The notes below the pieces were generated by a model that had not been told where the DNA came from, did not search any database, and worked only from the letters and a program-made list of their open reading frames with translations. A program made the position numbers and the translations under genes. A DNA stretch of 64,000 bases from positions 1,550,001 to 1,614,000 of the forward strand of contig NZ_CP095554.1 in assembly GCF_023078375.1 (NCBI RefSeq), read 5' to 3'. The DNA comes from Roseomonas gilardii subsp. gilardii. Its GTDB lineage: Bacteria > Pseudomonadota > Alphaproteobacteria > Acetobacterales > Acetobacteraceae. Below are positions 33,241 through 55,312 of this stretch, one piece after another; the first letter of the stretch is position 1, and each line of letters begins with the position of its first letter.

Positions 33241-36200
33241 CTATTCCGCCGGCTGCGCCGCCGGCCCGATGCGCGGCCCCGCGCTGCGCCCGCCACGCAG
33301 GCGCTTCACCCGCTGGCCCAGCGCCTCGAAGCCCAGATAGAGCACCGGCGTCACGAAAAGCGTCAGCGCCTGGCTCACCGCGAGGCCGCCGACGATGGCC
33401 AGGCCCAGCGGCTGCCGCAGCTCCGCCGCGGCACCCCAGCCCGCCGCGATCGGCACCGCGCCGGCGGCGGCGGCCAGCGTCGTCATCAGGATCGGCCGGA
33501 AGCGCAACAGGCAGGCCGCGCGCACGGCGGAAAGCGGGTCCTCGCCCTCCCGCTGCCGGACCAGGGCGACATCCACCACCATGATGGCGTTCTTCTTCAC
33601 CAGCCCGACCAGCAGCAGCACGCCGATCACCGCGATCACCGACAGGTCCAGGTTGAACCACCACAGCGTCGCCAGCGCGCCGAGCGCCGCCGCCGGCAGG
33701 CCGCTCAGGATGGTCAGCGGATGTACCAGGCTCTCGTAAAGCACGCCGAGGACCACATACATCACCAGCACGGCGGCCAGGATCAGCATGCCCTGGCCCG
33801 CCAGTGCCTGCTGGAAGACCTGCGCCGTGCCGGAGAAGCTGCCGATCACTCCGGCGGGCAGGCCCAGCTCCTCCTCCGTCTGCTGGATCGCCGCCGTGGC
33901 ATCGCCCAGCGCCACGCCGGGCGCCACGTTGAAGCCGATCGTCACCGCCGGAAGCTGCCCCTGGTGCCCCACGGTCAGCGGCCCGGTGGAACGCGTCACC
34001 TTCGCCAGGGTGGACAGCGGCACCAGCTTCCCGCCGCTGGCGCGGAGGTAGATCTTGTCCAGCCCGTTCTCGTTGCGCTGGTCCTCCGGCAGGGCCTCGA
34101 CGATCACCGGATAGGCATTGGCCTGGGCATAGATGGTCGAGATCTGCCGCGCGCCGAAGGCGGAATAGAGCGCCTGCCGCACCTGGTCGATGTTCACGCC
34201 CAGCGAGGCCGCGCGCTCCCGGTCCACCTGCACCGAGACCACCGGCGCATCCAGCGTCAGGTCGGTGTTCACGTCCTGGAGCTGCGGCAGCCGCCGCAGC
34301 CGCGCCGCCAGATTCTCCGAGAAATCATAGAGCGTGCCGGGATCCAGGCCCTGCAGGGTGTAGATATAGAGCGTGCGGGCCTGCCGCGCCCCGAAGGACA
34401 GGTTCTGGATCGGCTGCAGATAGACCGCCAGGCCCGGCACCCGCGCGGTCGCGCGGCGGAGCTGCTGCACCACCTCGCCGATCGGCGGCCGCTGGTCGCG
34501 CGGCTTCAACTCCACGAACATGCGGCCCTGGTTGATCGACAGGCTGGTCCCCACCGCGCCGACGGAGGAGTTCACCATCTGCACCGCGGGGTTGGCCTGG
34601 ATGATCTTCGCCGCCTGGCCCTGAAGGTCCAGCATGGCGTCGAAGGAAGCGTCGCGCGGCCCCTCGGTGGAGACGGAGAGCAGCCCCGTATCCTCGATCG
34701 GGAAGAAGCCCTTGGGCATCGCCACGGCCATCCAGCCCGCCGCCGCCAGGGAGGCGATGAAACAGAGCCAGACCACGGCCCGCCAGCGCAGGGCGATGTC
34801 CAGCGCCCAGGCATAGGCCCGCTCCACCGCGCGGAAGCAACCCTCCAGCGCCGCATCGACCCGCGACGGCTTGCTGTGCGCCGGCAGCCAGGAGGACATC
34901 ATGGCGGTCAGCGTCAGCGAGACGAGGCACGACACCGCCACGGACAGCGACACGGTGGCGGCGAAGGCATTGAACACCCGCCCCACCACGCCGCCCATCA
35001 GCAGGATCGGCAGGAAGACCGCGATCAGCGAGCAGGTGATCGAGATGATGGTGAAGCCCACCTCGCGCGAGCCGCGCAGCGCCGCCTCCAGGGGAGGCAT
35101 CCCCTCCTCGACATGGCGCACGATGGCCTCCAGCATCACGATGGCGTCGTCCACCACGAGGCCGACGGCCAGCGTCAGCCCCAGCAGCGTCACGTTGTCG
35201 ATGCCGTAGCCCAGCAGGTACATCAGCCCCAGCGTGCCGGCGAGCGAGACAGGCACCGCGATCACCGGGATCAGCGTCGCCATCGCCCGCCGCAGGAAGA
35301 GCCACACCACCAGCACCACCAGGGCGACGGCGATCAGCAGGCTTTCCTGCACGTCATGCACCGCCGCGCGGATCGACACGGACCGGTCCAGGTTCACGTC
35401 CAGCCGCGCGCCCGGCGGCAGCGCCGCCTGCAAGGCCGGCAGCGCCGCCCGCACCCCGTCCACCACATCCACCGTATTGGCGTCCGGCTGCCGCTGCACC
35501 GCCAGGGTCAGGCCGCGCGTGCCGTTGCGGAAGGAGGCGATGCGGTCGTTCTGCACCCCGTCCACCGTGTCGGCGATGTCGGACAGCCGCACCGGCGCCC
35601 CGGCCCGGCCCGCCACGATCAGGTGCCCGAAGGCCTCGGCATCGGGCGGCTGGTCATTGGCCCGCAGCACGAGCTGCTGCCGCGGCCCGCTCAGCGTGCC
35701 GACCGGCGTGTTGGAATTCGCCGTGGCGATGGCGTTGCTCACCTGGTCGAGCGTGAGGCCCATCGCGGCCAGCCGCTCCGGCCGCATCCGCACCCGCACG
35801 GAATAAAGCTGCTCGCCGAAGGTCACCACCTGCGCCACCCCCGGCACGCGCGAGAGGGCGGGCGAGATCAGCGTCGAGGCGATGTCGTTCAGCTTGTAGA
35901 GCGGCACGTCGCCGCCCGAGAGCGTCAGCAGCAGCACCGGCGCATCCGCCGGGTTCGACTTGCGATAGGAGGGCGGCGTCGTCATCTCCGTCGGCAGCCG
36001 CCGCTGCGCCCGGGTCAGCGCCGCCTGCACATCCTGCGCCGCCGCGTCGATGTTGCGGCTCAGCACGAATTGCAGCGTGATCTGCGTCGTGCCCTGGCCG
36101 GAGGTCGAGGAGATGCTGTCGATCCCCGCGATGGTCGAGAATTCCCGCTCCATCGGCAGGGCCACCGAGGTCGCCATCGTTTCCGGGCTCGCCCCCGGCA

Positions 36201-36351
36201 ACTGGGCGGAGACGGTGATCACCGGGAAGTCCACCCGCGGCACCGCGGCCACCGGCATCGAGAAATAGCCGAGGATGCCCGCCAGCACCGCGGCCACGGC
36301 GAGCAGCCCGGTCATCACCGGGCGGCGGATGAAGGGTTCGGAAAGGTTCAT
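33241..36351 (-). CDS. RND-family efflux pump permease (MdtC/AcrB type)
   Basis: 1036 residues, full length for an inner-membrane HAE1-type RND pump with 12 membrane helices and two large periplasmic loops. The opening MNLSEPFIRRPVMTGLLAVA and FSMPVAAVPRVDFP are typical of the MdtB/MdtC/MuxC branch. The proton-relay aspartates are in VGLVVDDAIVMLEAIVRH. The start codon overlaps the stop of the adaptor gene (ATGA), so the two are translationally coupled. MdtBC-type systems normally carry two permeases; here only one is present, so the pump would be homotrimeric. An outer-membrane channel gene is not adjacent. Confidence 0.96.
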   Translation of the reverse strand: MNLSEPFIRRPVMTGLLAVAAVLAGILGYFSMPVAAVPRVDFPVITVSAQLPGASPETMATSVALPMEREFSTIAGIDSISSTSGQGTTQITLQFVLSRNIDAAAQDVQAALTRAQRRLPTEMTTPPSYRKSNPADAPVLLLTLSGGDVPLYKLNDIASTLISPALSRVPGVAQVVTFGEQLYSVRVRMRPERLAAMGLTLDQVSNAIATANSNTPVGTLSGPRQQLVLRANDQPPDAEAFGHLIVAGRAGAPVRLSDIADTVDGVQNDRIASFRNGTRGLTLAVQRQPDANTVDVVDGVRAALPALQAALPPGARLDVNLDRSVSIRAAVHDVQESLLIAVALVVLVVWLFLRRAMATLIPVIAVPVSLAGTLGLMYLLGYGIDNVTLLGLTLAVGLVVDDAIVMLEAIVRHVEEGMPPLEAALRGSREVGFTIISITCSLIAVFLPILLMGGVVGRVFNAFAATVSLSVAVSCLVSLTLTAMMSSWLPAHSKPSRVDAALEGCFRAVERAYAWALDIALRWRAVVWLCFIASLAAAGWMAVAMPKGFFPIEDTGLLSVSTEGPRDASFDAMLDLQGQAAKIIQANPAVQMVNSSVGAVGTSLSINQGRMFVELKPRDQRPPIGEVVQQLRRATARVPGLAVYLQPIQNLSFGARQARTLYIYTLQGLDPGTLYDFSENLAARLRRLPQLQDVNTDLTLDAPVVSVQVDRERAASLGVNIDQVRQALYSAFGARQISTIYAQANAYPVIVEALPEDQRNENGLDKIYLRASGGKLVPLSTLAKVTRSTGPLTVGHQGQLPAVTIGFNVAPGVALGDATAAIQQTEEELGLPAGVIGSFSGTAQVFQQALAGQGMLILAAVLVMYVVLGVLYESLVHPLTILSGLPAAALGALATLWWFNLDLSVIAVIGVLLLVGLVKKNAIMVVDVALVRQREGEDPLSAVRAACLLRFRPILMTTLAAAAGAVPIAAGWGAAAELRQPLGLAIVGGLAVSQALTLFVTPVLYLGFEALGQRVKRLRGGRSAGPRIGPAAQPAE

Positions 36352-37628
36352 CGCGCCGCCGCCTCGCGCAGCGCGCGGCCCGGCTCCGCGCTGCCGACCC
36401 TGGGGGCGCCTCCGGCACCGTGCACCGTCACATGCGCGCCGTCCTGCAGCCGCTGCGCGCCCTCCGTCACCACCGGCTCGCCATCCGCGAGCGCGGCATC
36501 GGCCAGCACGGCCCGGCCCGAGGCATAGCGCACCACGTTCACCGCGACCCGCCGGGCGGCGGCATTCTCGCCCTCGCCCTTCACCGCGTAGAGGAAGCTG
36601 CCCTGCTGCCCGCGCTGCACCGCCGCCGCCGGCACCGACAGGGCCTTCGGATCGGTGCGCGGCACCAGCACCACTTCCAGATACTGCCCCGGCCAGAAGC
36701 GCGCCGGGGCATTGGCGAAGCGCCCCTTCATGCGGATCGTGCCCGTCGTGCTGTCCACCGCGCTGTCCACGAAGACCAGCTCGCCCTCGGCGCGCGGCCC
36801 CTGGTCATCCGGCGCCCGCGCCAGCACCTTGGGCGGCGCGGCCTGCCCGGCGGCGGCGCCCTGCTGCGCCGCATGCACCTCCGACAGCCAGCGCTCCGGC
36901 ACGGCGAAGGTGACCAGGATCGGGTCCGTCTGGGTGATGGTGGCCAGCACCACCCCCTCCGAGGCGCGCACGAAATTCCCCGCCTTCACCGGCAGCGCGC
37001 CCAGCCGCCCCGGCGCCTCGGCGCGGATCGTGGCGAAGTCCAGGTTCAGCCGCGTCTGCGCCAGCAGCGCCTCGTCCGCCCGCACCACCGCCGCCGCCGA
37101 GGCCGCATCCGCCTGCGCCTGTTCCAGCCGCTGCTGCGAGGCATAGGCCCCCGACTGCAGCGAGGCATAGCGCCGCGCATCCTCCTGCGCCCGCGTGAGC
37201 GTCGAGCGGTCCCGGTCCAGGTTCGCCTGCTGCTGCGCGAGCTGGGCCTGGATGAGGCGGCTGTCCAGCGTGAACAGCACCTGCCCCGCCTGCACCCGGT
37301 CGCCCTCGTTGACCCAGACCTTCTCCACCTGTCCATCGACGCGGGAGCGGACCGAGATGACCGAGGGCGCCTCGGCATTGCCATTGGTCAGCACCTCCAC
37401 CGGCACCGGCCCCACCGTGGCCGGCGCCACCGCGACCGAGACGGCTGGCGCCCCGCCGCCGCGTTCCTGCGCCCGTGCGCCCGCCGGCAGCAGGCCAGGC
37501 ACCGCGCCGAGAAGCGCCGAGCCAAGAAGGATCACGGGCATTGTTCCGGCCAGAGGGCTGGCTGGTTTCCGGGACGGAGCCCGGACGGACGCCCCGGGAA
37601 GGGATGGGGCGCGGAGCGCGAAGGGCAT
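36348..37628 (-). CDS. RND efflux periplasmic adaptor (membrane fusion protein)
   Basis: About 426 residues with the MFP order: signal/anchor, beta-barrel and lipoyl halves (VRSRVDGQVEKVWVNEGDRV, then RAEAPGRLGALPVKAGNFV), a coiled coil between them (about 125-200, Gln/Ala-rich) and C-terminal barrel (GTIRMKGRFANAPARFWPGQ). It bridges the inner-membrane pump to an outer-membrane channel. Start choice is uncertain: the ATG at 37628 leaves a basic 29-residue stretch before the hydrophobic signal, while the ATG at 37541 (MPVILLGSALLGAVPG) begins right at the signal peptide. Neither has a strong ribosome binding site. First gene of the two-gene efflux operon. Confidence 0.92.
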   Translation of the reverse strand: MPFALRAPSLPGASVRAPSRKPASPLAGTMPVILLGSALLGAVPGLLPAGARAQERGGGAPAVSVAVAPATVGPVPVEVLTNGNAEAPSVISVRSRVDGQVEKVWVNEGDRVQAGQVLFTLDSRLIQAQLAQQQANLDRDRSTLTRAQEDARRYASLQSGAYASQQRLEQAQADAASAAAVVRADEALLAQTRLNLDFATIRAEAPGRLGALPVKAGNFVRASEGVVLATITQTDPILVTFAVPERWLSEVHAAQQGAAAGQAAPPKVLARAPDDQGPRAEGELVFVDSAVDSTTGTIRMKGRFANAPARFWPGQYLEVVLVPRTDPKALSVPAAAVQRGQQGSFLYAVKGEGENAAARRVAVNVVRYASGRAVLADAALADGEPVVTEGAQRLQDGAHVTVHGAGGAPRVGSAEPGRALREAAAR

Positions 37629-38275
37629 GGGCGACACCCGCGTGAGAGGGAATGGCGAGCTTTGGTGCTGCCTGTTCTGCAACGATCATACCGGAAACAT
37701 CCCGCTCACGGAGCCGCGAACTTCGCCCTGTGATGCTTTGTCACCGGGAAAAGATGGTTTCGCCGTGCCGGATGAACGGCCTGCAAGCTGGCACGGTGGC
37801 GGTTCTTCCTGCGGTGGCGTCCTCATCCCCCTTCCGCCCCTCTGGCGCCGCCGCCCGGCCGCTCCCCCGTGATCCGCCGGGATGGCTTTCCCGCCATTCC
37901 CGGCACCGCCGGAGGAATGACAAGGACTTCATCTTTCGCGCCCCCGCCGCCGCTCTCCGGCAGGGAATCGCGGCCTGCGCGTCCGTCTCACCCTGGCTAC
38001 CCGCGGGGCATCTGCCCCGCTGGTGGGCCGGACCTGGCCATGGCATGGCGGCGGGGCCCATGACGCCGCCCGCTTCCTCCTGTCCCCGCTGGATGTCCGG
38101 GCCGGATGCCCGGCGCTCCCCTCCAGGCCGCCGCCATCCCCGCCTGCCGCGGCTGTGGATGGCGTGGGGGCCTCCGCCCAACCCAATCCACCGGCCTTGT
38201 GCCCGGGCACACAGCCACCCGGCCGGCGAGCCGCCAGGATGCCGTCATGGCATCAGGGACGAGGAGGGGCCCGCA
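37629..38275. other. 650-base intergenic region, nothing firm seen
   Basis: Lies upstream of the efflux adaptor (minus) and before the small gene at 38276 (plus). Several open frames exist on both strands, but none has both a spaced ribosome binding site and plausible protein sequence. An ATG at 37917 follows GGAGGA with essentially no spacing, so I do not accept it. It should contain the efflux operon promoter and the promoter of the small gene. Confidence 0.4.
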
Positions 38276-38446: not shown

Positions 38447-38461
38447 CGCCGCCGCGTCAGG
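38442..38461. terminator. Palindromic hairpin shared by two convergent genes
   Basis: CCTGACGC (38442-38449), loop CGCC, GCGTCAGG (38454-38461): a perfect 8-bp stem. The left arm contains the TGA of the small gene and the right arm the TGA (complement TCA) of the Crp/Fnr gene. A bidirectional terminator or transcript-end stabiliser; no T-tract. Confidence 0.6.
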
Positions 38462-39200
38462 ACAGGTTCAGCGCATGCACCGCCCGCTCGGCGCCGCGCA
38501 GCGCCGCGTCGAGCTCGGCGCGCATCGCCTCGGGCCGGCGCAGCACGATGCCGCTCCGGCTCGCATCGATCAGCCCGGCCTTCTCCATGTCCGACAACTG
38601 CCGCGACACGGCCTCGCGCCGCGCGCCGATGCGGGCGGCCAGCACATGGTGCGGCGGCGGCGGGCTGACCACACGCTCGGCCGTCTGGCCCGGCGCGGCG
38701 CGCCCGCGCGACAGGCGCAGGAGCTCGGCATAGAGCCGCTGCCGCACCGGCAGGGCCGCCAGCTCGAACAGCCGCTCGCTGCGCGAGCGCACGAGCTCCG
38801 CGAGATAGCGCATCAGCCGCAGCGACACGGCAGGAGAGGCCAGCACCAGTTCCATGAAGGCCGCCCCCGGCAGCACGCAGAAGCGCGAGCGGTGCAGGGC
38901 GGTGACATTGGCGGAACGCGGCTGTCCGGTGATGGCCGCCAGCTCGCCGAAGGCTTCGCCGGGCGACAGGTCGCCCAGGATCATCTCGTAACCCTCCCCG
39001 GTGCGCGCCACGACCCGCGCGGCCCCCTCGAGGAGGAAGTAGACATCGTCCGACAGCTCGCCGAAATCGATCAGGACCGTGCCGGGCTCGCAGGAACGGC
39101 AGCGCGCATGGCGGGCCGCCTTTTCCAGCGCACCCGGATCGGCGCCCTGCAAGAGGGCCAGGCGCCCCAGACTCTCGGTATCCACTCCATGGCTCCACAT
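38457..39200 (-). CDS. Crp/Fnr-family transcriptional regulator
   Basis: 247 residues: an N-terminal cyclic-nucleotide-binding fold (about 15-130, ISP-style GEAFGELAAITGQPRSANVTA), a dimer helix and a C-terminal winged helix (HHVLAARIGARREAVSRQLSDMEKAGLI). The cNMP phosphate-binding pattern GE..GELA....PRSA is intact, so a cAMP-like ligand is possible. There is no N-terminal Cys cluster for an Fnr-type Fe-S centre. The ATG at 39200 has an AAGGAGG ribosome binding site. It lies 225 bases after the YcaO-TfuA operon on the same strand. Since that operon starts with a predicted adenylate cyclase, a cAMP link is attractive but unproven. Confidence 0.92.
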   Translation of the reverse strand: MWSHGVDTESLGRLALLQGADPGALEKAARHARCRSCEPGTVLIDFGELSDDVYFLLEGAARVVARTGEGYEMILGDLSPGEAFGELAAITGQPRSANVTALHRSRFCVLPGAAFMELVLASPAVSLRLMRYLAELVRSRSERLFELAALPVRQRLYAELLRLSRGRAAPGQTAERVVSPPPPHHVLAARIGARREAVSRQLSDMEKAGLIDASRSGIVLRRPEAMRAELDAALRGAERAVHALNLS

Positions 39201-39425: not shown

Positions 39426-40007
39426 TCACCGCCCGCTCAGATTGGCGCGGCCGAAGACCTCGGCCCGCCCCGTCACCTCCGCCCGGCCGGTGACCTCGGC
39501 CCGTCCCGCCAGGGCATCGGCGCGGCCGCCATGCAACAGCGCCTCGATCATCCCGGTGCTGATGTCGATGCGCAGCCCCATGTCGCCACGGTCGAAGAGC
39601 CAGACCCGCAGCCCGTCCATGAAGTGCCCCGCATCCCGGATGAAGCCGGTCGTCGCGACGGAGCCGTGTTCCGGCACGGGAATGCCCTCACCCTCCACCA
39701 GGAAGACGGCGGGCGCGGGCAGCGGCACATACTGCCCGTCATAGCTGTAGCCGAAGATCCGGGCCAAGGCGGGCGGCGGCTTGGCATCCGGGGCCAGCCG
39801 CGCCATCAGCGGGTCCTGGAACCCTCCGCTCCGGGCATAGGGCGCGCGGGATGCCTCGCTGATGGTGAAGCCCAGGAAGGGCACGCCGAAGAGCCGGATC
39901 GCGGCCGGGGCGAGCAGGGTTTCCCCGAGCCGCGCCGCGGGGCTGATCTGTGCCCCGGCGCTGCCTGCTCCCACCTCGGCCTGTTCCGCTTCAGGGCTGT
40001 CCGACAT
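39426..40007 (-). CDS. Unknown 193-residue protein with C-terminal GRAEVT hexapeptide repeats
   Basis: Last gene of the YcaO-TfuA operon, 66 bases after the metalloprotease gene. The ATG at 40007 has a GGAG ribosome binding site. Residues 1-25 are acidic and low complexity; 25-160 form a beta-rich-looking region with several aromatics (IFGYSYDGQYVPLPAPAVF); the end is a run of hexapeptide repeats, GRAEVT, GRAEVT, GRAEVF, GRANLS, GR (about 168-193), encoded by 18-bp repeats. There are no cysteines. I recognise no family. In this operon it may be a substrate of the YcaO-TfuA pair (leader plus repeated core) or a structural partner; neither is demonstrated. Confidence 0.75.
   Translation of the reverse strand: MSDSPEAEQAEVGAGSAGAQISPAARLGETLLAPAAIRLFGVPFLGFTISEASRAPYARSGGFQDPLMARLAPDAKPPPALARIFGYSYDGQYVPLPAPAVFLVEGEGIPVPEHGSVATTGFIRDAGHFMDGLRVWLFDRGDMGLRIDISTGMIEALLHGGRADALAGRAEVTGRAEVTGRAEVFGRANLSGR
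39429..39524. repeat. 18-bp tandem repeats encoding GRAxxx units
   Basis: About five imperfect 18-bp units at the 3' end of the 193-residue gene encode the hexapeptides GRADALA (7 residues), GRAEVT, GRAEVT, GRAEVF and GRANLS. The two GRAEVT units are encoded by near-identical but not identical DNA (CGG-GGC/CGG-GGA variants), so the protein repeat appears to be maintained. Confidence 0.85.
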
Positions 40008-40073
40008 GCTCCATCTCCATCCGCGAGACGCTTCGCGGCATTATATCCATTCAGGAATGATACGGCAGTGTTT

Positions 40074-41462
40074 TCAACCGGGCGATGCGCGCGACCCGTG
40101 CGGCATCATCCGGCGTGTGGCGATGATGTCGCCGTGGCAGGCGCAATGCCTCGGCCGGCCCAGCTCCGGCCCATGAGGGGGCCGTAGCGCTTCCGGCGCG
40201 GTCCGGGAGGCGGACGAAGGGGGTCCGGCCGGAGCCCCCGGCAGGAAGGGGCGCGGGTCGATATCCCTTTCGTCGAAGATGTCGAGCAGGGCGTCCACCG
40301 TGATGCGCGGGGCGGCGCCCGGTTCCGTCAGAGCCTCGATCAGCAATGCCGCCACGCGGTCGAAGCTGACCTCCTCCGGGTCCAGCCGCAGGATGGTGCG
40401 CGCCATGGCCAGCCCGGCCCGGTCGCGCGCCCGGTGCAGGCACAGGCGGAAGACGCTCTCGAAACGCGCCAGCGCCTCGGCCGAGGCATGCCGCAGCGGC
40501 GCCAGCGCGGCCGCGACCGCCGCCGGCGTCCAGCTCCGCGTGTCGCGGTCCGGCGGGATGACGCCTTCCGCCACCAGCCCTTCCTGGAACAGCTCCACCA
40601 GGATGTCCCAGACCGCGCCGGTCAGCGGCGCCGCCAGCATATGCGCGTTGCGGCCGAGGTTCAGCGGGTCGCGCCAGGTGCCGTCCTCCATCAGGCGCAG
40701 CCCGCGCAGGTCGCGGAGGCGGACCGTGTTGTCCACCACCCGTACCTGCTCGACATCCGAAATCTCGCCGAGCCGGCTGACCAGGTTCAGCTCGTAGAGA
40801 TTGCCCGAGGTCTGGGCGAGCAGCCGCGTCACCACCGAGGGGAAGTGCAGCACCGCGACGGTCGAGATCAGGTCGGCGAAAGCTTCGTGGAAGGCCAGGA
40901 AGGCGCCGCTCACCGCGCCGGAAGCCGGCACGCCCATGGTGGAGAAAAGGATGGCGTGGCCGACCTCATGCGCCACGACATCGAAGCTGAGGCAGAGCGG
41001 CAGCGCCTGCCCGAAGCGGGTCCAGCGCAGCCCCGTTTCCAGGAAGCCGAAGCCGGACTGCGCATTGGCCCAGTACACGACCGGCTGCAGCTCCAGCCGC
41101 GGCAGCACGTCCGCATGCCACCACCGGACGGGCCGCCCCAGATAATCCTCCCAGATCTCCAGCACGAGCCGGGTCGTGCCGTAGAGATGCGCCGACAGGA
41201 ATTCCGGCGCGCCGGAGGGGATGCGGTCGAAATTCCCGGCCGCATCCGGCAGGGCGGGCGGCAGCAGCGCGCCCTGGTAGGGCGGCAGCCAGGCCGGCGG
41301 GTCATAGGGCTCCCGCTTGTCCACCGCATGCGCGACATACATCCGGTCGTCCGACGGCCCCGGGCCGATGCTGCCGGGGGCAGCCGCCAGTTCCACCAGC
41401 TCGGGCTCGTCATAGCCCTGCGCCCATTGCGGGAAGAGCCGGAACAGCGTGCCCCCGGCCAT
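40074..41462 (-). CDS. Gluzincin-type zinc metalloprotease-like protein (HEVGH)
   Basis: 462 residues. VVAHEVGHAIL gives His165-Glu166-His169, and AFHEAFADLIS supplies Glu193 and Asp197 in the thermolysin (M4-like) ExxxD arrangement, 24 residues after the second His. A zinc endopeptidase of the gluzincin clan is therefore predicted. There is no signal peptide, so it is probably cytoplasmic. The C-terminal ~60 residues are Pro/Arg-rich with a His/Cys patch (RPRHCACHGD). It starts 3 bases after tfuA and precedes the repeat protein. In RiPP loci such an enzyme could remove a leader peptide. Family name below clan level is not recognised. Confidence 0.8.
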   Translation of the reverse strand: MAGGTLFRLFPQWAQGYDEPELVELAAAPGSIGPGPSDDRMYVAHAVDKREPYDPPAWLPPYQGALLPPALPDAAGNFDRIPSGAPEFLSAHLYGTTRLVLEIWEDYLGRPVRWWHADVLPRLELQPVVYWANAQSGFGFLETGLRWTRFGQALPLCLSFDVVAHEVGHAILFSTMGVPASGAVSGAFLAFHEAFADLISTVAVLHFPSVVTRLLAQTSGNLYELNLVSRLGEISDVEQVRVVDNTVRLRDLRGLRLMEDGTWRDPLNLGRNAHMLAAPLTGAVWDILVELFQEGLVAEGVIPPDRDTRSWTPAAVAAALAPLRHASAEALARFESVFRLCLHRARDRAGLAMARTILRLDPEEVSFDRVAALLIEALTEPGAAPRITVDALLDIFDERDIDPRPFLPGAPAGPPSSASRTAPEALRPPHGPELGRPRHCACHGDIIATRRMMPHGSRASPG

Positions 41463-41465
41463 GCC

Positions 41466-42799
41466 TCAGCCCCCGCCCTGGGGTGGGGAGGCCTCCACCC
41501 CGTCGCGCCGCATGGTCAGGGCCATGCGGTATTCCCGCCAGATGGCGGCCCGGAAGCGGTCCGCATCGGGGAAGCCATGGGCCCGCGCCTCGGCCTCCTC
41601 CCCGCCGGGCGGCGGGGGCGGCCGCTCCGCCCGTGTCTCGAACCACCAGCGCAGCGCCGCGTCGAGCACCGCCTCGCCGGCCATGTCCCGGTCTTCCTCC
41701 TCCCGCCCCGCCAGCCTGGCCCGCAACGCGGCGTAGCGGCCGGACAGGCGCAGCGCATCCAGCATCGCGCCCAGGGTGGCCGGGGCCGGCGGGCGCCGCA
41801 GCCCCTCCCGGATCGCGGCCTCCCGGGCGAGGAGCCGGTGCAGCCCGGCCTCGTCGAGGTCATGGGCCGCCAGCCAGGCTTCCAGCGCCGAGCGCCGCCA
41901 CAGGCCATGGCGCCGGCGGAAATCCTCCAGCAGCGCGGCATCGGGCACCCCATGGCCAGGCGGGCCCGGATGACCCTCCGCCATCAGGCGCAACTCCCGC
42001 CATGCGGCCGGATCGGACACCGCGAGTTCCTGCAACACGCCTTCCCTCTGCTCCTCCCCCTCCGGCTGCGCGGCAAGGAAGTTCTCCCAGGCAAGGCTAC
42101 GGATGAAGCGGAACCCCGGCGCCCTCCGATCGGGGGAGATCAGGCCGATTCGGGCCAACAATTCCTCGGCATCGCGCCGTTTCTGCGCGACCCGGTGGTG
42201 CCGCAGCCACTCCACGGCCTCACGCCCGAGCCCCGGCATGGCCGCGGCCTCCCGGACGAGGCGCGCATGGCTCCGCTCCGGGAAGGGCAGGCGCTTGAGT
42301 GCCCGGGCCAGGGCCTCGCACCCCTCCAGCCCGATCGCGCCGGCGCTCCAGGCGGCGGCCAGCGTGGCGCGCAGGTCCACCATGGCGTCGGAGGCGGCGA
42401 CCCAGCCGGCCTCGGCGGGTGCGTGCAGGATGGCGACCTCGTCGTCATCCTCGAAGGCTTCGCCGAAAGGGGGAAGCGCCCGGCGCGATAGGCGCGGTAG
42501 ACGGCGCCGACCCCCTCCATCCCGAAGGCGTCGCATTCGGCGGCGCGCAGGGCCCCCATGCTGGCGGCACCCAGCACCGGGATGCCTTCGGACAGAGCCC
42601 AGAGGATCTCCCGGTGCCAGACCGCCGGCGCCTCCCGGAACAGCCCGTCCACCAGCCCGATCGCGCGGGGGCGCAGGGAGCGTGCCGCGCGGTAGAGATC
42701 GCCCTGCCGCGCCGGGGGCAGGAGGATGGCCTCCGGCGCGATCGCCCGCGCATCCTCCCGCGGCAGGCTGGGGCCGAGAAAGACGACCGGCGCCCTCAT
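41466..42799 (-). CDS. tfuA: TfuA-like protein, apparent -1 frameshift
   Basis: Starting at the ATG at 42799 (overlapping the ycaO stop), the product carries the TfuA core: RAIGLVDGLFREAPAVWHRE, LGAASMGALRAAECDAFGM and GVGAVYRAYRAG. At a G5 run on the plus strand (42469-42473) the frame breaks; the continuation FEDDDEVAILHAPAEAGW and AMVDLRATLAAA, also TfuA-like, lies in the -1 frame to 41466. One extra C in the coding run would join them into about 444 residues. TfuA proteins partner YcaO enzymes in thioamide formation, probably delivering sulfur. Homopolymer sequencing error is the likeliest cause; recent inactivation or -1 slippage on the CCC codon are alternatives. Confidence 0.85.
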
Positions 42800-44055
42800 G
42801 TCCGGCCCACCGCCCTGGCCCGGGCGCCGGGGGCATAGCCGCCGCCGGCCGGGCCCGGCGTGCCCTCCAGCCCCGCCACCACGGCCCGCACCACCGGGAT
42901 GCCGATCTCCTCCCGCGTCAGGTCCACCCAGGCCACGGGCCCGAGCCCGGCCGCCCCGATCCGGGACAGCAGCAGGGCGAGGTCGGCACCGATCCCGGGA
43001 GCCGCGCAGCCCTGGACCTCCCCGAAGCGCCGCCGGGGCATCGCCGCCTCGGCCATGGCGCGCCGCGCGGCGGCGCGGCGGGCGGCCCGGGCGGGGGCGG
43101 CATAGGATTCCGGCGCGAAATCGTCCCGCGCGCCGGAGATGCGGGTGACGCGCGCCTGCGCCGCCTCGGCCAGGGCACGGGACAGGGCCACGCCCGGGTC
43201 GGGATGGCATCCCAGGCCAAGCTCCGCCTCCACCCCCGGCTCCTCCCGCCCCGGCAGGGCCAGGACGCGGAAGGCGGGGATGCCGAGGCCGGAGGTGATG
43301 TCCCAGATCGCCAGGGCGATGCCGGCGGCGGCGAAGCGGGCCAGGAAATCGGCGCAGAGCGGATCGGCGATGCTGGCGGGGTCGATCGCCGTCTCCGCCC
43401 GGGCCTCCGGCGGCCGGGCCAGCCAGAGGGCATGCGCGTCGCGCTCCACCAGCTCGGCCAGGGCATGCACCAGCGCCTCGGCGCGCGTGTTGCCGGAGGC
43501 AAGGCCGTTCGTGGTCGCCTGGAGGAAGCCGCCGGAGGGCGGCCCGTCCAGCGCATAGTCGGCGGTCACCAGATCCAGCGGCACCCAGAGCGGCATGCCA
43601 TCGGCGAGGTCGCGCCCCTCCACCCAGAGCATCGGCACCGCGCACGGCAGCAGGTCCGGCGCCGCGCCGGCGCTGCGCGGCAGCCGGGCCGGGTCCAGCA
43701 GCCTCAGCCCGCCCTCCCGCAGCCCGTCATGGCTGCCCCAGCGCAGCGGCGCCGCATGGGTCTCGGCATGCCAGGCCTCCGCCGCCTCCATCACCGCCGA
43801 GGCCTTGGCCGCCGCCAGGGTCGCGCCCTTGCCCTGGAAGACGGAGAGGGAGCGCGCATTGGGGCGGACCGCCGCCGCGACGGGAATGCCCGTCACGTCC
43901 AGCCCGGTCAGCACCGCCACCCGCGTCAGGCCGAAGCGCTCCGCATGGCGCAGCGCCCGCTCCAGGGTGTCCCCGGGATCGCAGACCCGGTGCGCGCCGA
44001 GGCGGAAGCGCTTGGCCCCGTCCTCGGGCGGCAGACCGGGAGGAAGACCGGTCAC
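42796..44055 (-). CDS. ycaO: YcaO-domain protein (ATP-dependent backbone-modifying enzyme)
   Basis: 419 residues. ATP-binding hallmarks of YcaO proteins are present: SVFQGKGATLAAAKASAVME (71-90, with E90 and E93), a Gln/Thr/Asn block QATTNGLASGNTRAEA (179-194) and ELVERD (201-206). YcaO enzymes activate a peptide amide oxygen with ATP; with TfuA, they are linked to thioamide installation, as for methanogen McrA and the thioviridamide and trifolitoxin loci. The C-terminus lacks the PxPxP end typical of azoline cyclodehydratases. The GTG at 44055 overlaps the stop of the cyclase gene (GTGA), and its stop overlaps the tfuA start (ATGA), so all three are translationally coupled. Confidence 0.93.
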   Translation of the reverse strand: MTGLPPGLPPEDGAKRFRLGAHRVCDPGDTLERALRHAERFGLTRVAVLTGLDVTGIPVAAAVRPNARSLSVFQGKGATLAAAKASAVMEAAEAWHAETHAAPLRWGSHDGLREGGLRLLDPARLPRSAGAAPDLLPCAVPMLWVEGRDLADGMPLWVPLDLVTADYALDGPPSGGFLQATTNGLASGNTRAEALVHALAELVERDAHALWLARPPEARAETAIDPASIADPLCADFLARFAAAGIALAIWDITSGLGIPAFRVLALPGREEPGVEAELGLGCHPDPGVALSRALAEAAQARVTRISGARDDFAPESYAAPARAARRAAARRAMAEAAMPRRRFGEVQGCAAPGIGADLALLLSRIGAAGLGPVAWVDLTREEIGIPVVRAVVAGLEGTPGPAGGGYAPGARARAVGRT

Positions 44056-47000
44056 GGCGCCAGGGAGACGGCGATCCGCCGGAGCCTCGCCAGCAGGCGC
44101 TCGACCTCGCCATCGCCGTCCCGTTCCGCGCGCTCCGCCGCCGCCGCGATCCGCCGCAGCATCTCCGCATCGCCGCGGCGGCCGAGCCGCAGGTCGAGAT
44201 GCGCGAGGCTCAGCCGCGCCCGCAGCGCCAGCATCGACGCGCCCTGCGCCTCGGCCAGCCGCAGCGCCTCGCGCAGCGAGGCCTCGGCGGCGGCCTCCGA
44301 GCCGGGGCCGCCGGCCTGCAGGCGCAACTGGCCCAGCACGCGCCACACCTCCGGCATCCAGATCTGCAGCCCGACGCGCTCGAACAGCTCGCGCGCCTCG
44401 TCGAGTTCCGCCACCGCGCGCCGCACCTGTCCCGCCGTGGTCTGCGCCTCGGCCAGCAGCGTGTGGAAGATGGGGAAGTCCTCGATGGTGCCGACCTCGC
44501 GCTGCACGGCCAGCCCCGCCTCGATCGAGCGCAGCCCCTCCGCCGCCTCCCCGCGCGCCGAGGCCGCCCAGCCGCCGAAGATCATCCCCTTGGCCCGGTA
44601 GTCGGGCAGGTCATGCGTCTCGGCGGCTTCCATCATGCGCCGCGCCGCCTCCGCCATCTCCGCCGGGTCGCGGCGGTAGGCCCGGTGCATGGCGTGGATG
44701 TCCAGCGCGTGCAGGATGCTGCCCAGATGGTTGATCTCCAGCGCCCAGGCCCGGGCCTGGGCCTCGGCGCGCAGCGCCGCGCCGGGGCGGCCTTCCAGCC
44801 ATTCCAGCAGCGCCGTCTCGCCCAGGGCGCAGACCTTGGCATCGTGGTTGCCGTAGAGCGTGGCGTGGTGGCGATAATCACCCGCCTCGTAGATGGCGAG
44901 CCCGGACTCGATGTCCTCCCGGCAGCCGCAGAGATCGCCCAGGCCGAAGCGCGTGCCCCAGCCGCAGTGATGCGCCTGCAGCAGGCTGCCCGGCTCGCCG
45001 CGCCGGCGGGCCCGTTCGGACAGGGCGCCGGAGCGCAGCCGCTTGATGTTGTAGTCCCGCGACACGCGCCACCAGCCCCAGGCGATGGGGAAATGCGCGC
45101 TCTCGTCGGCGGCCGTGTCGTTCAGCGCGGCATAGCTCTCGGCATAATGGTCCTGCGTCTCGGCGGCGCCCGGCCCGTGCAGGGCGATCAGCGCCGGGCC
45201 GAGCAGCGCCAGGAGTTCCAGCCGCTGCGCGCGCAGCGCCGGGGTGGGCGGCACCGTGTCGATCGCCCGCAGCGCCCGGCGCAGCAGGCGCGTCGCCTCG
45301 GCATAGGCGGAGCGCCCCAGGCTGCGCCGCGTCGCGGCGAGCCAGAGCGGCACGCTGTCCGCCACCCGCCCGGCTTCGGCGAGGTGATGCGCCAGGACCT
45401 CCGGCTCCGCGGCGACCCGGTCGGGGTCGAACTCCGGCAGCGCCTGGGCAAGCCGCGCATGCAGCAGGCGGCGCCGGTCGCGCACCAGGCTCTCATAGGC
45501 GGCGTCGCGCAGCAGCGCGTGGTGGAAGGTCCAGCCCTCGCGCCCGGACAGGCTGCGCCGCTGGAGCACCCCGGCCATTTCCAGATGCGCCAGGGCGGCG
45601 TCCAGCTCCTCGCCCGGCAGTTCCGTGGCCGCCTGGAGCAGGTCGCGCGGCACGGAGCGCCCGGCCGCCGCCGCCGCCTGGGCCACCGCCTTGGCGGATT
45701 GCGCCCGGTCGAGCCGCGCCACGAGGCATTCCCGCAGGCTGGGCGGCACCTCCGCCTCGGCCTCCACCGTGCCGTCCAGGATGGCGCGCGCCAGCTCCTG
45801 CGCATAGAGCGGCACGCCCTCCGTGCGCGACGCGACCAGCCGGCTGATCCGCCGCGTCAGATGCGGGGCATCCGGGGAGGAGCCGGCCACGGCCTCCACC
45901 AGTTGCACCATGTCGGGCTCGCTCAGCGGCCGCAGCTCCAGGAGCTCGACATCGCTCCAGGCCGGGGTGGCGGGAGGGGCGAAGGCCTCGCGCGAGGTGA
46001 GGAGGAGCAGGCAGCGGCCCGGCAGGCGCGACAGGGCGCGCTCCAGCAGCTCCATCGAGCTGGGATCGAGCCAGTGCAGGTCCTCCACCATCAGGCAGAG
46101 CGGCTGCCGCGCCGAGAGCCGGGTGAGCTGGTCGAGCAGCGCCGTGAGGGTCAGGCTGCGGAGCCGGCGCGGCGCCAGGGCGGCCAGGGCCGCCGGCCGC
46201 GCCCCCGCCCCGTCGCCGCCGACAAGCAGCAGCTCCGCCAGGGCGGCCGCGCGCTCGCCGGTCTCCGGCGCCTCCTCGCCCAGCCAGTGCCGCAGCTTGA
46301 CCAGGGCATCCGGCCATTCCTCGTCCGGAGCCAGGCGGGCCAGGGCGCGCAGCGGCGTCACCAGGGGATGGAACGGCGTGTCGGTGTGGAAGGGCGAGGC
46401 CATGAAGGTCAGCGCGGCCGAGCCGATCCGGTCCCGCCGCGTCGCCAGGAAGCGGCGCAGCAGGCTCGACTTGCCGATCCCGGCCTCACCCCGCAGCAGC
46501 ACGGTCCGGCTGGCGCCGGCCAGCACGCTGTCCCAGGCCTGTTGCAGCCGGGCGAGATCGGCCAGCCGGTTGACGAAGGCGTCGGGGCGGGCGAGGCGCC
46601 GGCGCTGGCCGCTGCGCTGGGCCTCCCGGCGCACCAGGAAGGCGGGGCAGGGCTCGCTGAAGCCCTTCAGCACCTGCGGGCCGAGATCGCGCATCTCGAA
46701 GATCGGCGTCAGCCGCGCCCGCGTCTCGCCGGACACGATGACCCCGCCGGGCGGTGCCAGGGCCTGGAGCCGCGCCGCGAGATTGGGCGTGGAGCCGATG
46801 GCCATGCTGTCGCCCGGCGCGTCGCCATGGCCCAGCAGGTCGCCGATCAACACCTGCCCCGTGGCGATCCCGGCCCGGGCGCGCAGCGGCTCCTGCCCCG
46901 GCGGCAGGTTCGGCAGCGGCACGCGCAGCCGCCGCACCGCCTCCACGGCCTCCAGCGCGGCGCGCACGGCGCGTTCCGGATCGTCCTCATGCGCGGCGGG

Positions 47001-47380
47001 GAAGCCGAAATAGGCGAGCACGCCATCGCCCAGGAACTGCGCGATGCGCCCGTCATAGCGCGCGACCGGGCCGGCACAGGCCTCGCGGTAGCGCTGCATG
47101 ACCCGCATCAGGTCCTCAGGCTCCAGCAGCTCCGCGAGGCGGGAGGAACCGACCAGGTCGAGGAACAGCACCGACAGCGGGCGGCGCTCGGCGCCCTGCG
47201 GGCGCCCCGGGTCCGCAGCGCCCGGCGGATCTGCTTGCGCGCGCCGATCGGCAAGCCGAGCTCGCGCAGGTCCGCCTCGCTGAGCTCCGGCAGATCGGAA
47301 AGGCTGATCCCGTGCGCCGCGAAATCCGGCGCGTACTGGGCGAGGCCGACCGACTGCAGCCACCGGAGCACGTCATCCAT
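44052..47380 (-). CDS. SAM-adenylate/guanylate cyclase-ATPase-TPR regulator, apparent frameshift near its 5' end
   Basis: The first ~60 residues (from ATG 47380, MDDVLRWLQSVGLAQYAPDF) form a SAM domain in one frame. The class III cyclase domain, with metal Asp residues in VLFLDLVGSS and FLGDGVLAYFG, is in another, followed by an AAA/NACHT-like ATPase (Walker A GEAGIGKSS, Walker B LCLMVEDLHWLD) and a long TPR-type helical tail. SAM-cyclase-AAA-TPR is a known architecture, so the frames should be joined; a missing base in the C4 run at 47205-47208 explains it. Joined length is about 1109 residues. It likely senses a signal and makes cAMP or acts as an ATP-dependent switch. First gene of the YcaO operon; its stop overlaps the ycaO start. 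Confidence 0.85.
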
Positions 47381-47636: not shown

Positions 47637-48986
47637 ATGCTGGAAGGCCAAGCGTCATCCATTCGGACGGTCCCGGATCGTACGGCCACGGATGCCCATG
47701 CCACCGTCAGCCTGTCCCCCCTGCTGCCGGCATCGCCCCAGGGCGAGGACCCGGTGTCCACCGTCATCGGCCTGATCTACGAGGCCGGCATGGCGCCGGA
47801 ACGCTGGCCCGAGGCGCTGGGCCGGCTGGCGGACCTGTTCGGCAGCGCCGCCGCGGCGCTGCATGTCGGCGAGGCGGGGGTGCCGGCCCGGATCACCATG
47901 GCCTATGGCCTCTCCGAGGAGGCGGTGCGCGGCTATGGCGGCTGCTACAACGCGCTCGATCCGGTGACGCCGGCGCTGCTGGCCGGCGCGGCCTGGAAGG
48001 CCCCGGCGACGCTGCGGCAGATCTCGCCGGCGCTGGAGCGCACGCGCTTCTTCACCGACTGGATGCGGCCGCACGGGATGGAGGATGGGCTGTGCCTCGG
48101 CCTCTGCCCGCCGGACCGGCCGCAGCAGGCCACGCTGCGCCTGCTGCGGCCACGGCGCGCCACGCGCTTCGGCCCGCCGGAGAGCGCCCTGCTGATGCGG
48201 CTGGCCCCCCATCTGCGCCGCGCCGCGGAGATGCACCACCGGCTGGCCTCGCCCCACGCACGCCCGGACGGGCCGCTGGTGGAGATCCTGAACCGGCTCG
48301 CCTGCGGGCTGATGCTGGCGGATTCGCGCGGCGCCCTGATCTGGGCGAACCGTGCCGCCAGCCGGATGCTGGAGGAAGCCGACGGCATCGGCACCGAGCG
48401 CCAGGGCAACCTGCGCGCGGGGTCGCCGGGCATGACGCGCCTCCTGCGCGACCTGGTGAACCGCGCGGCGCTCGGCCAGCATGCGGCGCTGCCCCTGCCG
48501 CGGGCCTCGGGAAAGGTTTCCCTCGCCCTCCAGGCCATGCCGATCACGGTGCGGGAGGTGGAGCGCCACCGCCAGGTCCTGCCGGCCTCGCCACGGGCCA
48601 GCGTGCTGCTGCTGCTGACCGATCCGGCGCGCGGCGCCATGCCCACGCCGGAAATCTGCCAGCAGCTCCGCGAGATCTACGGGCTGACCACGGCCGAGGC
48701 CGGCGTGGCGGCCTGGGCGGCACAGGGCATCGGCCTGCCGGAGGTGGGGCAGATCCTGGGGATCACCGTCAACACGGTGCGGACCCATGTGCGCCGCGTC
48801 TTCCACAAGACCGGGGTGCGCAGCCAGGCGGAGCTGGCGCGGCAGGTGGAACGGCTCGCCCCGCTGCTGGCGGAGGAAGGCCCGGGGCGGGGTGCGGAAA
48901 GGCCCGCGGCCGGAAGCGGCCTGCCGCGCGCACGGGCGCCCTGGCCCGCCGTGGGGAGCCTGCGGGACAGCTCCCCGGGGACGTGA
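47637..48986 (+). CDS. LuxR-family transcriptional regulator
   Basis: 449 residues with a C-terminal LuxR/NarL helix-turn-helix (LTTAEAGVAAWAAQGIGL..EVGQILGITVNTVRTHVRRVFHKTG, residues ~340-395). The N-terminal ~300 residues include a PAS-like segment (GLMLADSRGALIWANRAASRML) and no receiver Asp pocket, so this is a stand-alone sensor-regulator rather than a response regulator. The ATG at 47637 follows GAGAGG. It is divergent from the cyclase-YcaO-TfuA operon, with a 256-base shared promoter region, and is the obvious candidate controller of it. The last ~50 residues are Gly/Pro/Arg-rich, and the stop codon lies inside a 14-bp tandem repeat. Confidence 0.9.
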   Translation: MLEGQASSIRTVPDRTATDAHATVSLSPLLPASPQGEDPVSTVIGLIYEAGMAPERWPEALGRLADLFGSAAAALHVGEAGVPARITMAYGLSEEAVRGYGGCYNALDPVTPALLAGAAWKAPATLRQISPALERTRFFTDWMRPHGMEDGLCLGLCPPDRPQQATLRLLRPRRATRFGPPESALLMRLAPHLRRAAEMHHRLASPHARPDGPLVEILNRLACGLMLADSRGALIWANRAASRMLEEADGIGTERQGNLRAGSPGMTRLLRDLVNRAALGQHAALPLPRASGKVSLALQAMPITVREVERHRQVLPASPRASVLLLLTDPARGAMPTPEICQQLREIYGLTTAEAGVAAWAAQGIGLPEVGQILGITVNTVRTHVRRVFHKTGVRSQAELARQVERLAPLLAEEGPGRGAERPAAGSGLPRARAPWPAVGSLRDSSPGT

Positions 48987-49018
48987 TGCCGGGGACGTGA
49001 TGCCGGGGACGTGATGCC
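48977..49018. repeat. 14-bp tandem repeat, three exact copies
   Basis: GGGGACGTGATGCC occurs at 48977-48990, 48991-49004 and 49005-49018, followed by a partial unit. The first copy holds the stop codon (TGA 48984-48986) of the LuxR-type gene. A copy-number change would alter only the region after the stop. Confidence 0.95.
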
Positions 49019-49032
49019 GGGGGCATGACGGC

Positions 49033-54712: not shown

Positions 54713-55161
54713 TCAGCGGATCCAGGCCACCAGGGCGACGATCCAGGTGACCGCCGTCAGCGCCGCGGTGCCGATCAGCACCAGCCGGCCGGTGCGGTAG
54801 GTGGTGGGGATGTCGTAGCCATGGCCGGCATCCCAGACGAGGTGCCGGATGCCGTTCAGCGTGTGGTACCAGGCCACGGCGATCAGCCCCATCAGCACGA
54901 TCACGCCGAGGAAGGAGCCGGCGAACCACTGCACCCAGGCGAAGGCCCGGGGCCCGGACGCCGCCGCCGCCAGCCACCAGACCATGAACAGCAGCCCCAC
55001 CACCCAGGCGCAGCCGGTGATGCGGTGGCTGATCGACATGGCGCTGGTGATCTGCAGCATGTCGTAGACCTGCAGATGGGGGAAATCGGGCGGCGGACGG
55101 GCTTGCCATCGGAACGCCGGCCGTTGAACATCGCCTCGCGTGCGTCTTGTCCGCTCGCCAT
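54713..55161 (-). CDS. sdhC: Succinate dehydrogenase cytochrome b556 subunit, apparent -1 frameshift
   Basis: The gene starts at the ATG at 55161 (GAGGAG ribosome binding site): MASGQDAREAMFNGRRSDGK, then PVRRPISP. The expected SdhC sequence HLQVYDMLQITSAMSISHRI continues in another frame. The break falls on a G5 run on the plus strand (55078-55082); one more base restores RPISPHLQVYDMLQIT and a product of about 149 residues with three membrane helices and heme-ligand His in WYHTLNGIRHLVWD. Losing complex II would be severe for an aerobe whose other sdh genes are intact, so a base undercall in the sequence is the likeliest explanation. Confidence 0.9.
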
Positions 55162-55312
55162 GCCGCTCCTCGTCCTCATGTCACCGAGTCCGGGCGGCCT
55201 GGAAATGCCGGCGCGGCCGGGCCTCGTGTTGCAATAATCCGTGTCCGGGGCCTTTTAGGTTACGGCTTCGCACAACGTCAACGCGGCCCGGAATAACCTT
55301 CCTGAAGCGGGA

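What the first reader, a model, noticed from the sequence alone, without database searches (positions are those of the whole stretch)
39426..47380. Five-gene YcaO-TfuA operon headed by a SAM-cyclase-ATPase regulator, with an HExxH protease and a repeat-tailed protein
Seen: on the minus strand the cyclase-type regulator stop overlaps the ycaO start (GTGA), the ycaO stop overlaps the tfuA start (ATGA), the HEVGH protein starts 3 bases after tfuA, and a 193-residue protein ending in GRAEVT-type repeats follows after 66 bases. Known: YcaO with TfuA is associated with thioamide installation (methanogen McrA; thioviridamide and trifolitoxin loci), while most alphaproteobacterial YcaO-TfuA pairs have no assigned substrate. 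Inference: this is a self-contained modification system in which the regulator senses a signal, YcaO-TfuA modifies a peptide or protein, the gluzincin processes it, and the repeat protein is substrate or partner. A divergent LuxR regulator and a downstream Crp/Fnr regulator could complete the circuit.
Basis: partly seen in the sequence, partly recalled or inferred. Interest (0 to 1): 0.85.

Follow-up and report, generated by a model that had tools for sequence, protein, structure and literature searches.

The report
YcaO-TfuA system with repeat-tailed precursor
A Roseomonas chromosome carries a conserved gene set that probably adds sulfur to the backbone of a short peptide repeated in tandem at the end of a carrier protein; the same set occurs in scattered other Proteobacteria, including rhizobia.

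Summary
Both are single frames in four relatives, so these are recent indels or sequencing errors.

The module is real and recurrent. In 397 genomes of the family, the repeat-protein N-domain occurs in 10 and this type of YcaO in 10, with 8 shared. A class III cyclase gene lies beside 24 of 28 modules.

The 'repeat protein' has a conserved N-domain and a lineage-specific tail of 4-7-residue units (GRAEVT, GRSDLV, SGARV, SGKRV, MASRAV). Units are near-identical as protein but strongly diverged at synonymous sites (pooled pN 0.080, pS 0.647), as selected core peptides would be. Best reading: a multi-core precursor, thioamidated by YcaO-TfuA and cut by the gluzincin, as with actinobacterial thiovarsolins. 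At 149-291 aa, these precursors fall outside the 20-120 aa window of both published surveys read.

Exceptions exist: rhizobial loci lacking YcaO-TfuA, Paracoccus loci lacking the protease. No chemistry is shown.

The parts
47198..47380 (-). SAM domain, N-terminal part of the regulator, in a frame different from the rest
   Evidence: SAM_1 E 6.8e-12; frame comparison with G003
44052..47207 (-). Regulator body: class III nucleotide cyclase, AAA_16 ATPase and C-terminal region; TIGR03903-like
   Evidence: PF00211 E 1.8e-10, PF13191 E 3.1e-18; TIGR03903 382 bits, cut-off 706
42796..44055 (-). YcaO; GTG start overlaps the regulator stop
   Evidence: PF02624 E 1.4e-74; TIGR03266 207.6 bits against SagD 123.1
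41466..42799 (-). TfuA with long C-terminal extension, split over two frames
   Evidence: PF07812 positions 1-58 and 59-119 in two ORFs; one frame in G003, G004, G019, G027
42469..42473 (-). C5 run where the tfuA frame changes (relatives read through in one frame)
40074..41462 (-). HEVGH protein, gluzincin-like metallopeptidase (H165, E166, H169, E193, D197)
   Evidence: these residues invariant in 40 of 40 aligned rows; weak M4/M36 matches in some members
39426..40007 (-). 193-aa repeat-tailed protein: conserved N-domain plus tail; proposed precursor
39429..39506 (-). Tail GRAEVT GRAEVT GRAEVF GRANLS GR, proposed core peptides
38457..39200 (-). Crp/Fnr-family regulator downstream, possible part of the circuit
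   Evidence: PF00027, PF13545; in 3 of 15 genus genomes, the same three that carry the module
47637..48986 (+). LuxR-type (GerE) regulator, divergent from the operon; link weak
   Evidence: PF00196 E 4.4e-8; 3 of 15 genus genomes

Best explanation
This is a peptide-modification locus. The repeat-tailed protein is a multi-core precursor: its ~130-residue N-domain is a large leader that presents the tail to YcaO, and each short tail unit is a core. YcaO activates a backbone amide in each unit with ATP and TfuA supplies sulfide, giving thioamides, possibly at the residue before Arg as in thiovarsolin APR. The HExxH gluzincin then cuts the modified protein to release short peptides. A cyclase-ATPase regulator, with a Crp/Fnr protein in some lineages, controls it through a cyclic nucleotide. 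Shown: gene set, order, co-occurrence, conserved motifs, selected lineage-specific repeats. Inferred: substrate identity, thioamide, cleavage, release, signalling. In the sequenced strain the pathway works only if the two frame changes are sequencing errors.
For: Repeat protein and this YcaO type share 8 genomes, out of 10 each, in 397 of the family, own included (Fisher p 1.4e-13, not corrected for kinship). Of 19 HExxH loci with TfuA and/or YcaO among 49, 17 have the repeat protein, directly after HExxH; of the two misses L032 ends inside HExxH and L075 has none found. All 7 further genomes found by the N-domain have HExxH and TfuA beside it, 6 with YcaO. YcaO: the G-K-G...E..E and E..ER motif residues are invariant in 20 of 20 rows (that these bind ATP/Mg is recalled). 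All 20 YcaO and 16 TfuA rows match the McrA-glycine thioamidation models; the first row of each scores below the equivalog cut-off, the others' bit scores were not shown. Repeat units: pS 0.647, pN 0.080 pooled, ratio at most 0.26 in each of 20 arrays (some arrays are from near relatives). Module genes dN/dS 0.19-0.38. The 27 HExxH proteins of modules form one side of a branch against 29 unlinked ones (SH-aLRT 98). Thiovarsolins show that YcaO-TfuA can thioamidate a repeated core (PMC6511847, passages).
Against: No chemistry. The N-domain is large and conserved for a leader. No transporter gene recurs next to the operon; of the flanking clusters found in 3 or more loci, one (4 loci) looks like an ABC-transporter ATPase by my reading, its longest member several kb from the module. 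Arg is not universal: G268 has (GMNV)n and no adjacent YcaO, and Paracoccus has GMSV-type units. Three Rhizobium plasmid loci have cyclase, HExxH and repeat protein without YcaO-TfuA in the stretch read, though their HExxH nests inside the YcaO-linked group. Two Paracoccus loci lack HExxH. Some members have no repeats (L090, L092-L094, L103-L105; L036 is degenerate). Six of 17 repeat proteins match Pfam pentapeptide repeats. Units were chosen by protein identity, which biases pN down.
Confidence: 0.55

Rival explanations
1. The repeat protein is the YcaO-TfuA substrate but stays a whole, folded protein: thioamides in the tail tune its binding or stability, as with McrA and ribosomal uL16; the HExxH protein trims or regulates it.
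For: The N-domain is large and conserved over 14 diverse rows; no transporter recurs next to the operon (with the ABC-like exception told above); E. coli YcaO, which has no TfuA, modifies a folded protein through tertiary-structure recognition (PMC13063428, passages).
Against: Tails change unit length (4-7) and letters between lineages, unlike a fixed functional site; a protease gene sits directly before nearly all copies found, Paracoccus excepted.
Confidence: 0.2
2. The tail is a structural pentapeptide- or hexapeptide-repeat element and the repeat protein is a partner of the protease or regulator; the YcaO-TfuA target is encoded elsewhere.
For: PF00805 matches 6 of 17 members, best E 5.4e-6; three Rhizobium loci keep cyclase, HExxH and repeat protein without YcaO-TfuA nearby; one Azospirillum plasmid and two family genomes have YcaO-TfuA without the repeat protein in the stretch read.
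Against: Unit lengths of 4, 5, 6 and 7 on one N-domain do not suit one regular helix; the window tail has under five units; Paracoccus keeps YcaO-TfuA-repeat protein without the protease.
Confidence: 0.17
3. In this strain the locus is decaying: the frame changes in the regulator and tfuA are real and the pathway is dead here. (This does not exclude the readings above for the family as a whole.)
For: Two of five genes are shifted; four relatives read both in one frame.
Against: Both are single-base-type changes at or near G/C runs in a two-contig assembly; a third shifted gene lies elsewhere in the window (54,716-55,179). With three shifts, two or more falling in the five module genes has p of roughly 0.07-0.09 (hand calculation from gene lengths). 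Intact window genes of the module have dN/dS 0.27-0.35, mutL 0.23-0.28.
Confidence: 0.25

Closest known systems
Thiovarsolins (Streptomyces varsoviensis, YcaO VarY + TfuA VarT; PMC6511847)
   Same: YcaO-TfuA pair; precursor with repeated core; Arg in the repeat; thioamide between Pro and Arg of APR (passages)
   Different: Actinobacterial; precursors mined within a 20-120 aa window; [quoted passage not shown] no large N-domain, HExxH gene or cyclase in the passages I read
McrA-glycine thioamidation pair (TIGR03266 / NF033432)
   Same: Best curated NCBIfam matches of the YcaO and TfuA proteins
   Different: Window YcaO scores 207.6 bits against the cut-off of 365; bacterial operon with its own candidate substrate
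TOMM system kinase/cyclase fusion (TIGR03903)
   Same: Regulator matches over about 1,000 residues at 382 bits; 14 of 22 module cyclase proteins match at E 0.001
   Different: Window protein below the cut-off (706) and aligned only from model position 264; a SAM domain at the N-terminus
TfuA-related clusters of Proteobacteria (PMC8120280)
   Same: Over a thousand proteobacterial YcaO-TfuA clusters catalogued by antiSMASH, over 500 in Rhizobium (passages); loci like this one are probably among them
   Different: Precursors there were sought with RiPPER at standard settings (Methods read), i.e. 20-120 aa; 'repeat' and 'cyclase' do not occur in its main text
Thermolysin-like and fungalysin gluzincins (M4, M36)
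   Same: HExxH and a downstream E...D; weak matches in 8 and 11 of 40 members
   Different: No match for the window protein at E 0.1; no described family in Pfam or NCBIfam

Membership tests
Thioamidated RiPP (YcaO-TfuA) system | Adjacent YcaO and TfuA genes | tested here: met
   tfuA frame-shifted in this assembly, one frame in relatives
Thioamidated RiPP (YcaO-TfuA) system | Conserved nucleotide-binding type motifs in YcaO | tested here: met
   20 of 20 rows; role of the residues recalled
Thioamidated RiPP (YcaO-TfuA) system | Precursor with leader and core | tested here: inconclusive
   Conserved N-domain plus variable repeated tail, strongly linked, but no product known and the size is unusual
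Thioamidated RiPP (YcaO-TfuA) system | Thioamide in the product | not testable with these tools
   needs mass spectrometry
Thiovarsolin family | Homologous precursor and var accessory genes | not tested
   The VarA sequence was not fetched or compared; only passages of the paper were seen
TOMM kinase/cyclase fusion TIGR03903 | Score over the equivalog cut-off | tested here: not met
   382 bits against 706, scanned without the SAM part, which is in another frame
McrA-glycine thioamidation YcaO TIGR03266 | Score over the equivalog cut-off | tested here: not met
   207.6 bits against 365
Azole-forming TOMM (SagD type) | Score over the SagD cut-off | tested here: not met
   123.1 bits against 219; the operon genes scanned show no other azole-cluster family
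Pentapeptide repeat protein | Pfam pentapeptide match | tested here: not met
   no match in the window protein; 6 of 17 members of the family match
Gluzincin metallopeptidase | HExxH plus downstream Glu ligand | tested here: met
   motif residues invariant in 40 of 40 rows; ligand role by analogy; fold not tested, no structure prediction was completed

The most novel reading that the evidence does not exclude
A separate class of multi-core thioamidated peptides across Pseudomonadota, built from large precursors (conserved ~130-residue presenting domain plus a lineage-specific array of 4-7-residue cores), released by a dedicated gluzincin and controlled by a cyclic-nucleotide circuit; a source of short signalling or antagonistic peptides in Roseomonas, marine alphaproteobacteria and rhizobia that current surveys skip by their size filter.
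Probability: 0.4. Interest if true: 0.82.

Novelty: new variant of a known kind. Interest (0 to 1): 0.66.

Why it matters
Many proteobacterial YcaO-TfuA pairs have no assigned substrate. Here the neighbour with a repeat tail is a testable candidate, with units short enough to predict masses for. The likely reason it was overlooked (precursors over 120 aa) suggests a simple change in genome mining, and its occurrence on Rhizobium plasmids makes laboratory tests practical.

Tried and rejected
Programmed frameshifting as the cause of the two frame changes: rejected as most likely, because four relatives encode both genes in one frame and I see no classical slippery heptamer at the tfuA site (own reading).

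Neutral slippage as the source of the repeats: rejected, because units differ strongly at synonymous sites while protein letters hold.

'The HExxH family always marks YcaO-TfuA': rejected; 30 of 49 HExxH loci show neither gene, some of them on short contigs, but the 29 that could be placed fall on the other side of one branch.

'The repeat protein never occurs without YcaO-TfuA': held in my genome searches apart from G268 (YcaO missing) and two contig ends, then overturned by Rhizobium plasmids.

'A cyclase-like neighbour is special to modules': not strictly; three unlinked Rokubacteria loci (L071, L072, L074) also have a large protein that matches the regulator query at 1e-44 to 1e-50, 1.4 kb from HExxH; I did not scan its domains.

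LuxR and Crp as module genes: both occur in 3 of 15 genus genomes, the same three as the module, while a flanking transporter-type gene occurs in 10 of 15. The three may be one clade, so this is weak; Crp gains, LuxR does not.

Structure prediction: never obtained. Sequence searches of solved structures gave, up to E 1, nine chains for the HExxH profile (best two designed-type proteins, then weak fungalysins) and one for the repeat protein (E 0.95), none convincing.

One search's figure of 0.026 for clustering of frame changes took only the two genes already hit and is biased; I use roughly 0.07-0.09 for all five module genes. Its test for '60 relatives' miscounted (the own genome is one of the 60) and is not used. 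In one search the slice called tfuC was cut out of frame; superseded.
Full report
OBSERVATION. The window is G000:C1:1550001-1614000 of a 4.62-Mb, two-contig genome. Domain searches give SAM, class III cyclase, AAA, YcaO and TfuA; the HEVGH protein and the 193-aa protein match nothing in Pfam or NCBIfam at E 0.01.

FRAME CHANGES. The SAM domain and the cyclase body lie in different frames, as do the two halves of TfuA. In G003, G004, G019 and G027 the SAM-cyclase gene is one ORF and TfuA one frame. Of 34 G003 genes that could be mapped onto the window, 3 change frame (two here, one at 54,716-55,179); the reverse test gave 3 of 37, one of them the same cyclase event. The indels could be sequencing errors or recent damage. 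The intact module genes of the window (ycaO, HExxH, repeat gene) show dN/dS 0.27-0.35 against G003 and G004; mutL shows 0.23-0.28.

CO-OCCURRENCE. In 60 near genomes (own included) strong YcaO, HExxH and repeat-protein matches fall in the same five: own, G003, G004, G019, G027. Weaker YcaO matches in five others and partial HExxH matches in two others were not counted. In 397 genomes of the family (own included) the repeat-protein N-domain matches 10 and module-type YcaO (E up to 1e-60) 10, with 8 in common. The two with repeat protein only (G866, G827) sit on contigs that end inside the HExxH gene; the two with YcaO only (G810, G917) have TfuA but no HExxH or repeat protein in the stretches read. 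A scan of the GTDB contig collection with the HExxH alignment gave 49 loci. Nineteen have TfuA and/or YcaO, and 17 of these have the repeat protein (the L069 copy cut by the contig end); L032 ends in the HExxH gene and L075 has none that I could find. N-domain searches gave 7 of 385 genomes in the class and 5 of 398 in the phylum, own genome included in both. One of these (G246) is the L044 locus again; the other 7 have HExxH and TfuA beside the repeat protein and 6 have YcaO.

EXCEPTIONS. Plasmid records hold HExxH relatives in 162 records, 124 of them Rhizobium; in 75 the match covers at least 80% of the query, and the weakest are short and distant. Of those opened, R. phaseoli, R. johnstonii and Sinorhizobium K101 have the full cyclase-YcaO-TfuA-HExxH-repeat-protein order. 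Three R. leguminosarum/ruizarguesonis records have cyclase, HExxH and repeat protein but no YcaO-TfuA in the stretch. Their HExxH proteins nest in the YcaO-linked group, which suggests loss or action in trans; strain TP33 has another YcaO-TfuA cluster on a second plasmid. Two Paracoccus plasmids have YcaO-TfuA-repeat protein without HExxH. One Azospirillum plasmid has cyclase-YcaO-TfuA without either.

THE REPEAT PROTEIN. A conserved N-domain (14 rows, invariant G41, A82, G108, W136, D139, G152) is followed by a tail whose unit differs by lineage: GRAEVT (Roseomonas), GRSDLV, GRGQLV, GRGNLV, GRAAMV, GRADLV (family relatives), ARADMT (Pelagibius), SGQRVRA (a Rhodospirillales MAG), SGARV (Roseibium, Labrenzia, Ahrensia), SGKRV (Gammaproteobacteria MAGs), MASRAV/MASRAA (Aestuariispira, Kiloniellaceae), SRSGG-type (Rhizobium), GMNV (G268) and GMSV (Paracoccus). 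Some copies have a non-repeated tail, with PG[K/R/S]RSP..YA in six of them. In 20 arrays, differences between units are overwhelmingly synonymous (pooled pS 0.647, pN 0.080; ratio at most 0.26 in each). Several arrays come from near relatives, and picking units by protein identity lowers pN; but the high pS shows the units are old, not fresh duplications. Nineteen of the 20 arrays contain Arg; G268 does not.

ENZYMES. YcaO keeps the motif residues in 20 of 20 rows, and every row matches the McrA thioamidation model, best E 2e-78, against 3.5e-42 for the azole-forming SagD model. All 16 TfuA rows, which leave out the split window copy, match the corresponding TfuA model. The HExxH protein keeps H165, E166, H169, E193 and D197 in 40 of 40 rows, with weak M4 and M36 matches in 8 and 11 members. 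In a tree of 56, the 27 module proteins stand on one side of a branch (SH-aLRT 98) and 29 unlinked proteins on the other, including two Pseudomonadota; L076, a fragment, was left out. With six plasmid rows added, the unlinked 29 remain together.

REGULATION. Among 28 modules (window, G003, the 19 loci and the 7 new genomes; L040 and L073 are near-copies) a class III cyclase protein adjoins 24: fourteen cyclase-AAA types and ten cyclase-TPR types, one of the latter with a BTAD domain. I gave 22 of these 24 to Pfam, window and L028 left out, and all 22 matched PF00211. It was not seen in L035, L069 and L091, and L057 begins too close to tell. Crp/Fnr-type genes occur in 8 of 32 loci with YcaO-TfuA and 0 of 32 HExxH loci without (Fisher p 0.005, uncorrected for kinship; the 32 include two Paracoccus and one Azospirillum locus). 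So a cyclase-cyclic nucleotide-Crp circuit is plausible; it is not shown.

COMPARISON WITH THE LITERATURE. Thiovarsolins are made by YcaO-TfuA from a repeated core, with a thioamide between Pro and Arg of APR (PMC6511847, passages). The two surveys of YcaO-TfuA precursors that I saw used a 20-120 aa window (PMC6511847, passages; PMC8120280, Methods section at 'standard settings'), whereas the repeat-tailed proteins are 149-291 aa. I found no description of this precursor family in six searches of the held open-access library; subscription papers are mostly absent from it. PMC4603692 (passages) left TfuA-associated YcaOs aside as of unknown substrate. E. coli YcaO acts on a folded protein (PMC13063428, passages), which keeps the rival reading alive; the sulfide-delivering role of TfuA is taken from the same passages.

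VERDICT. A real, recurrent system, most likely a multi-core thioamide-peptide system of a new variety, possibly inactive in this very assembly. Structure, chemistry and function remain untested.

Noticed in passing
54716-55179: A third gene intact in G003 (155 aa) changes frame in the window, hinting at scattered assembly indels.
   Followed up: partly
48975-49022: Perfect 14-bp tandem array (3.4 copies of CCGGGGACGTGATG) at the end of the LuxR ORF, next to mutL.
   Followed up: no
33241-37682: A 1036-aa ORF and a 444-aa ORF that looks like a membrane-fusion protein lie downstream of the Crp gene; the 444-aa gene occurs in 10 of 15 genus genomes. The naming is my reading, not a family match.
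   Followed up: partly
L089:7577-8293, L034:13744-14358 and six other loci: A GNAT-like gene recurs beside the cyclase-TPR gene in 8 module loci (the L089 copy matched PF13302); thiovarsolins are N-acetylated.
   Followed up: partly
L099:8600-8932, L100:9949-10275, L103:8672-9016, L105:8690-9085: An extra small hypothetical gene follows the repeat protein in rhizobial loci.
   Followed up: no
L107:5917-8252: R. ruizarguesonis TP33 carries another YcaO-TfuA cluster on a second plasmid with an 88-aa ORF and a BTAD regulator.
   Followed up: no
L091 (G268): Repeat protein with tail (GMNV)n beside HExxH and TfuA but no YcaO in the stretch.
   Followed up: partly
L114:8503-9700: TfuA of G810 also appears split into two ORFs.
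   Followed up: no
L071, L072, L074, about 12.6-16.8 kb: Unlinked Rokubacteria HExxH loci also have a large regulator-like gene nearby that matches the module regulator.
   Followed up: no
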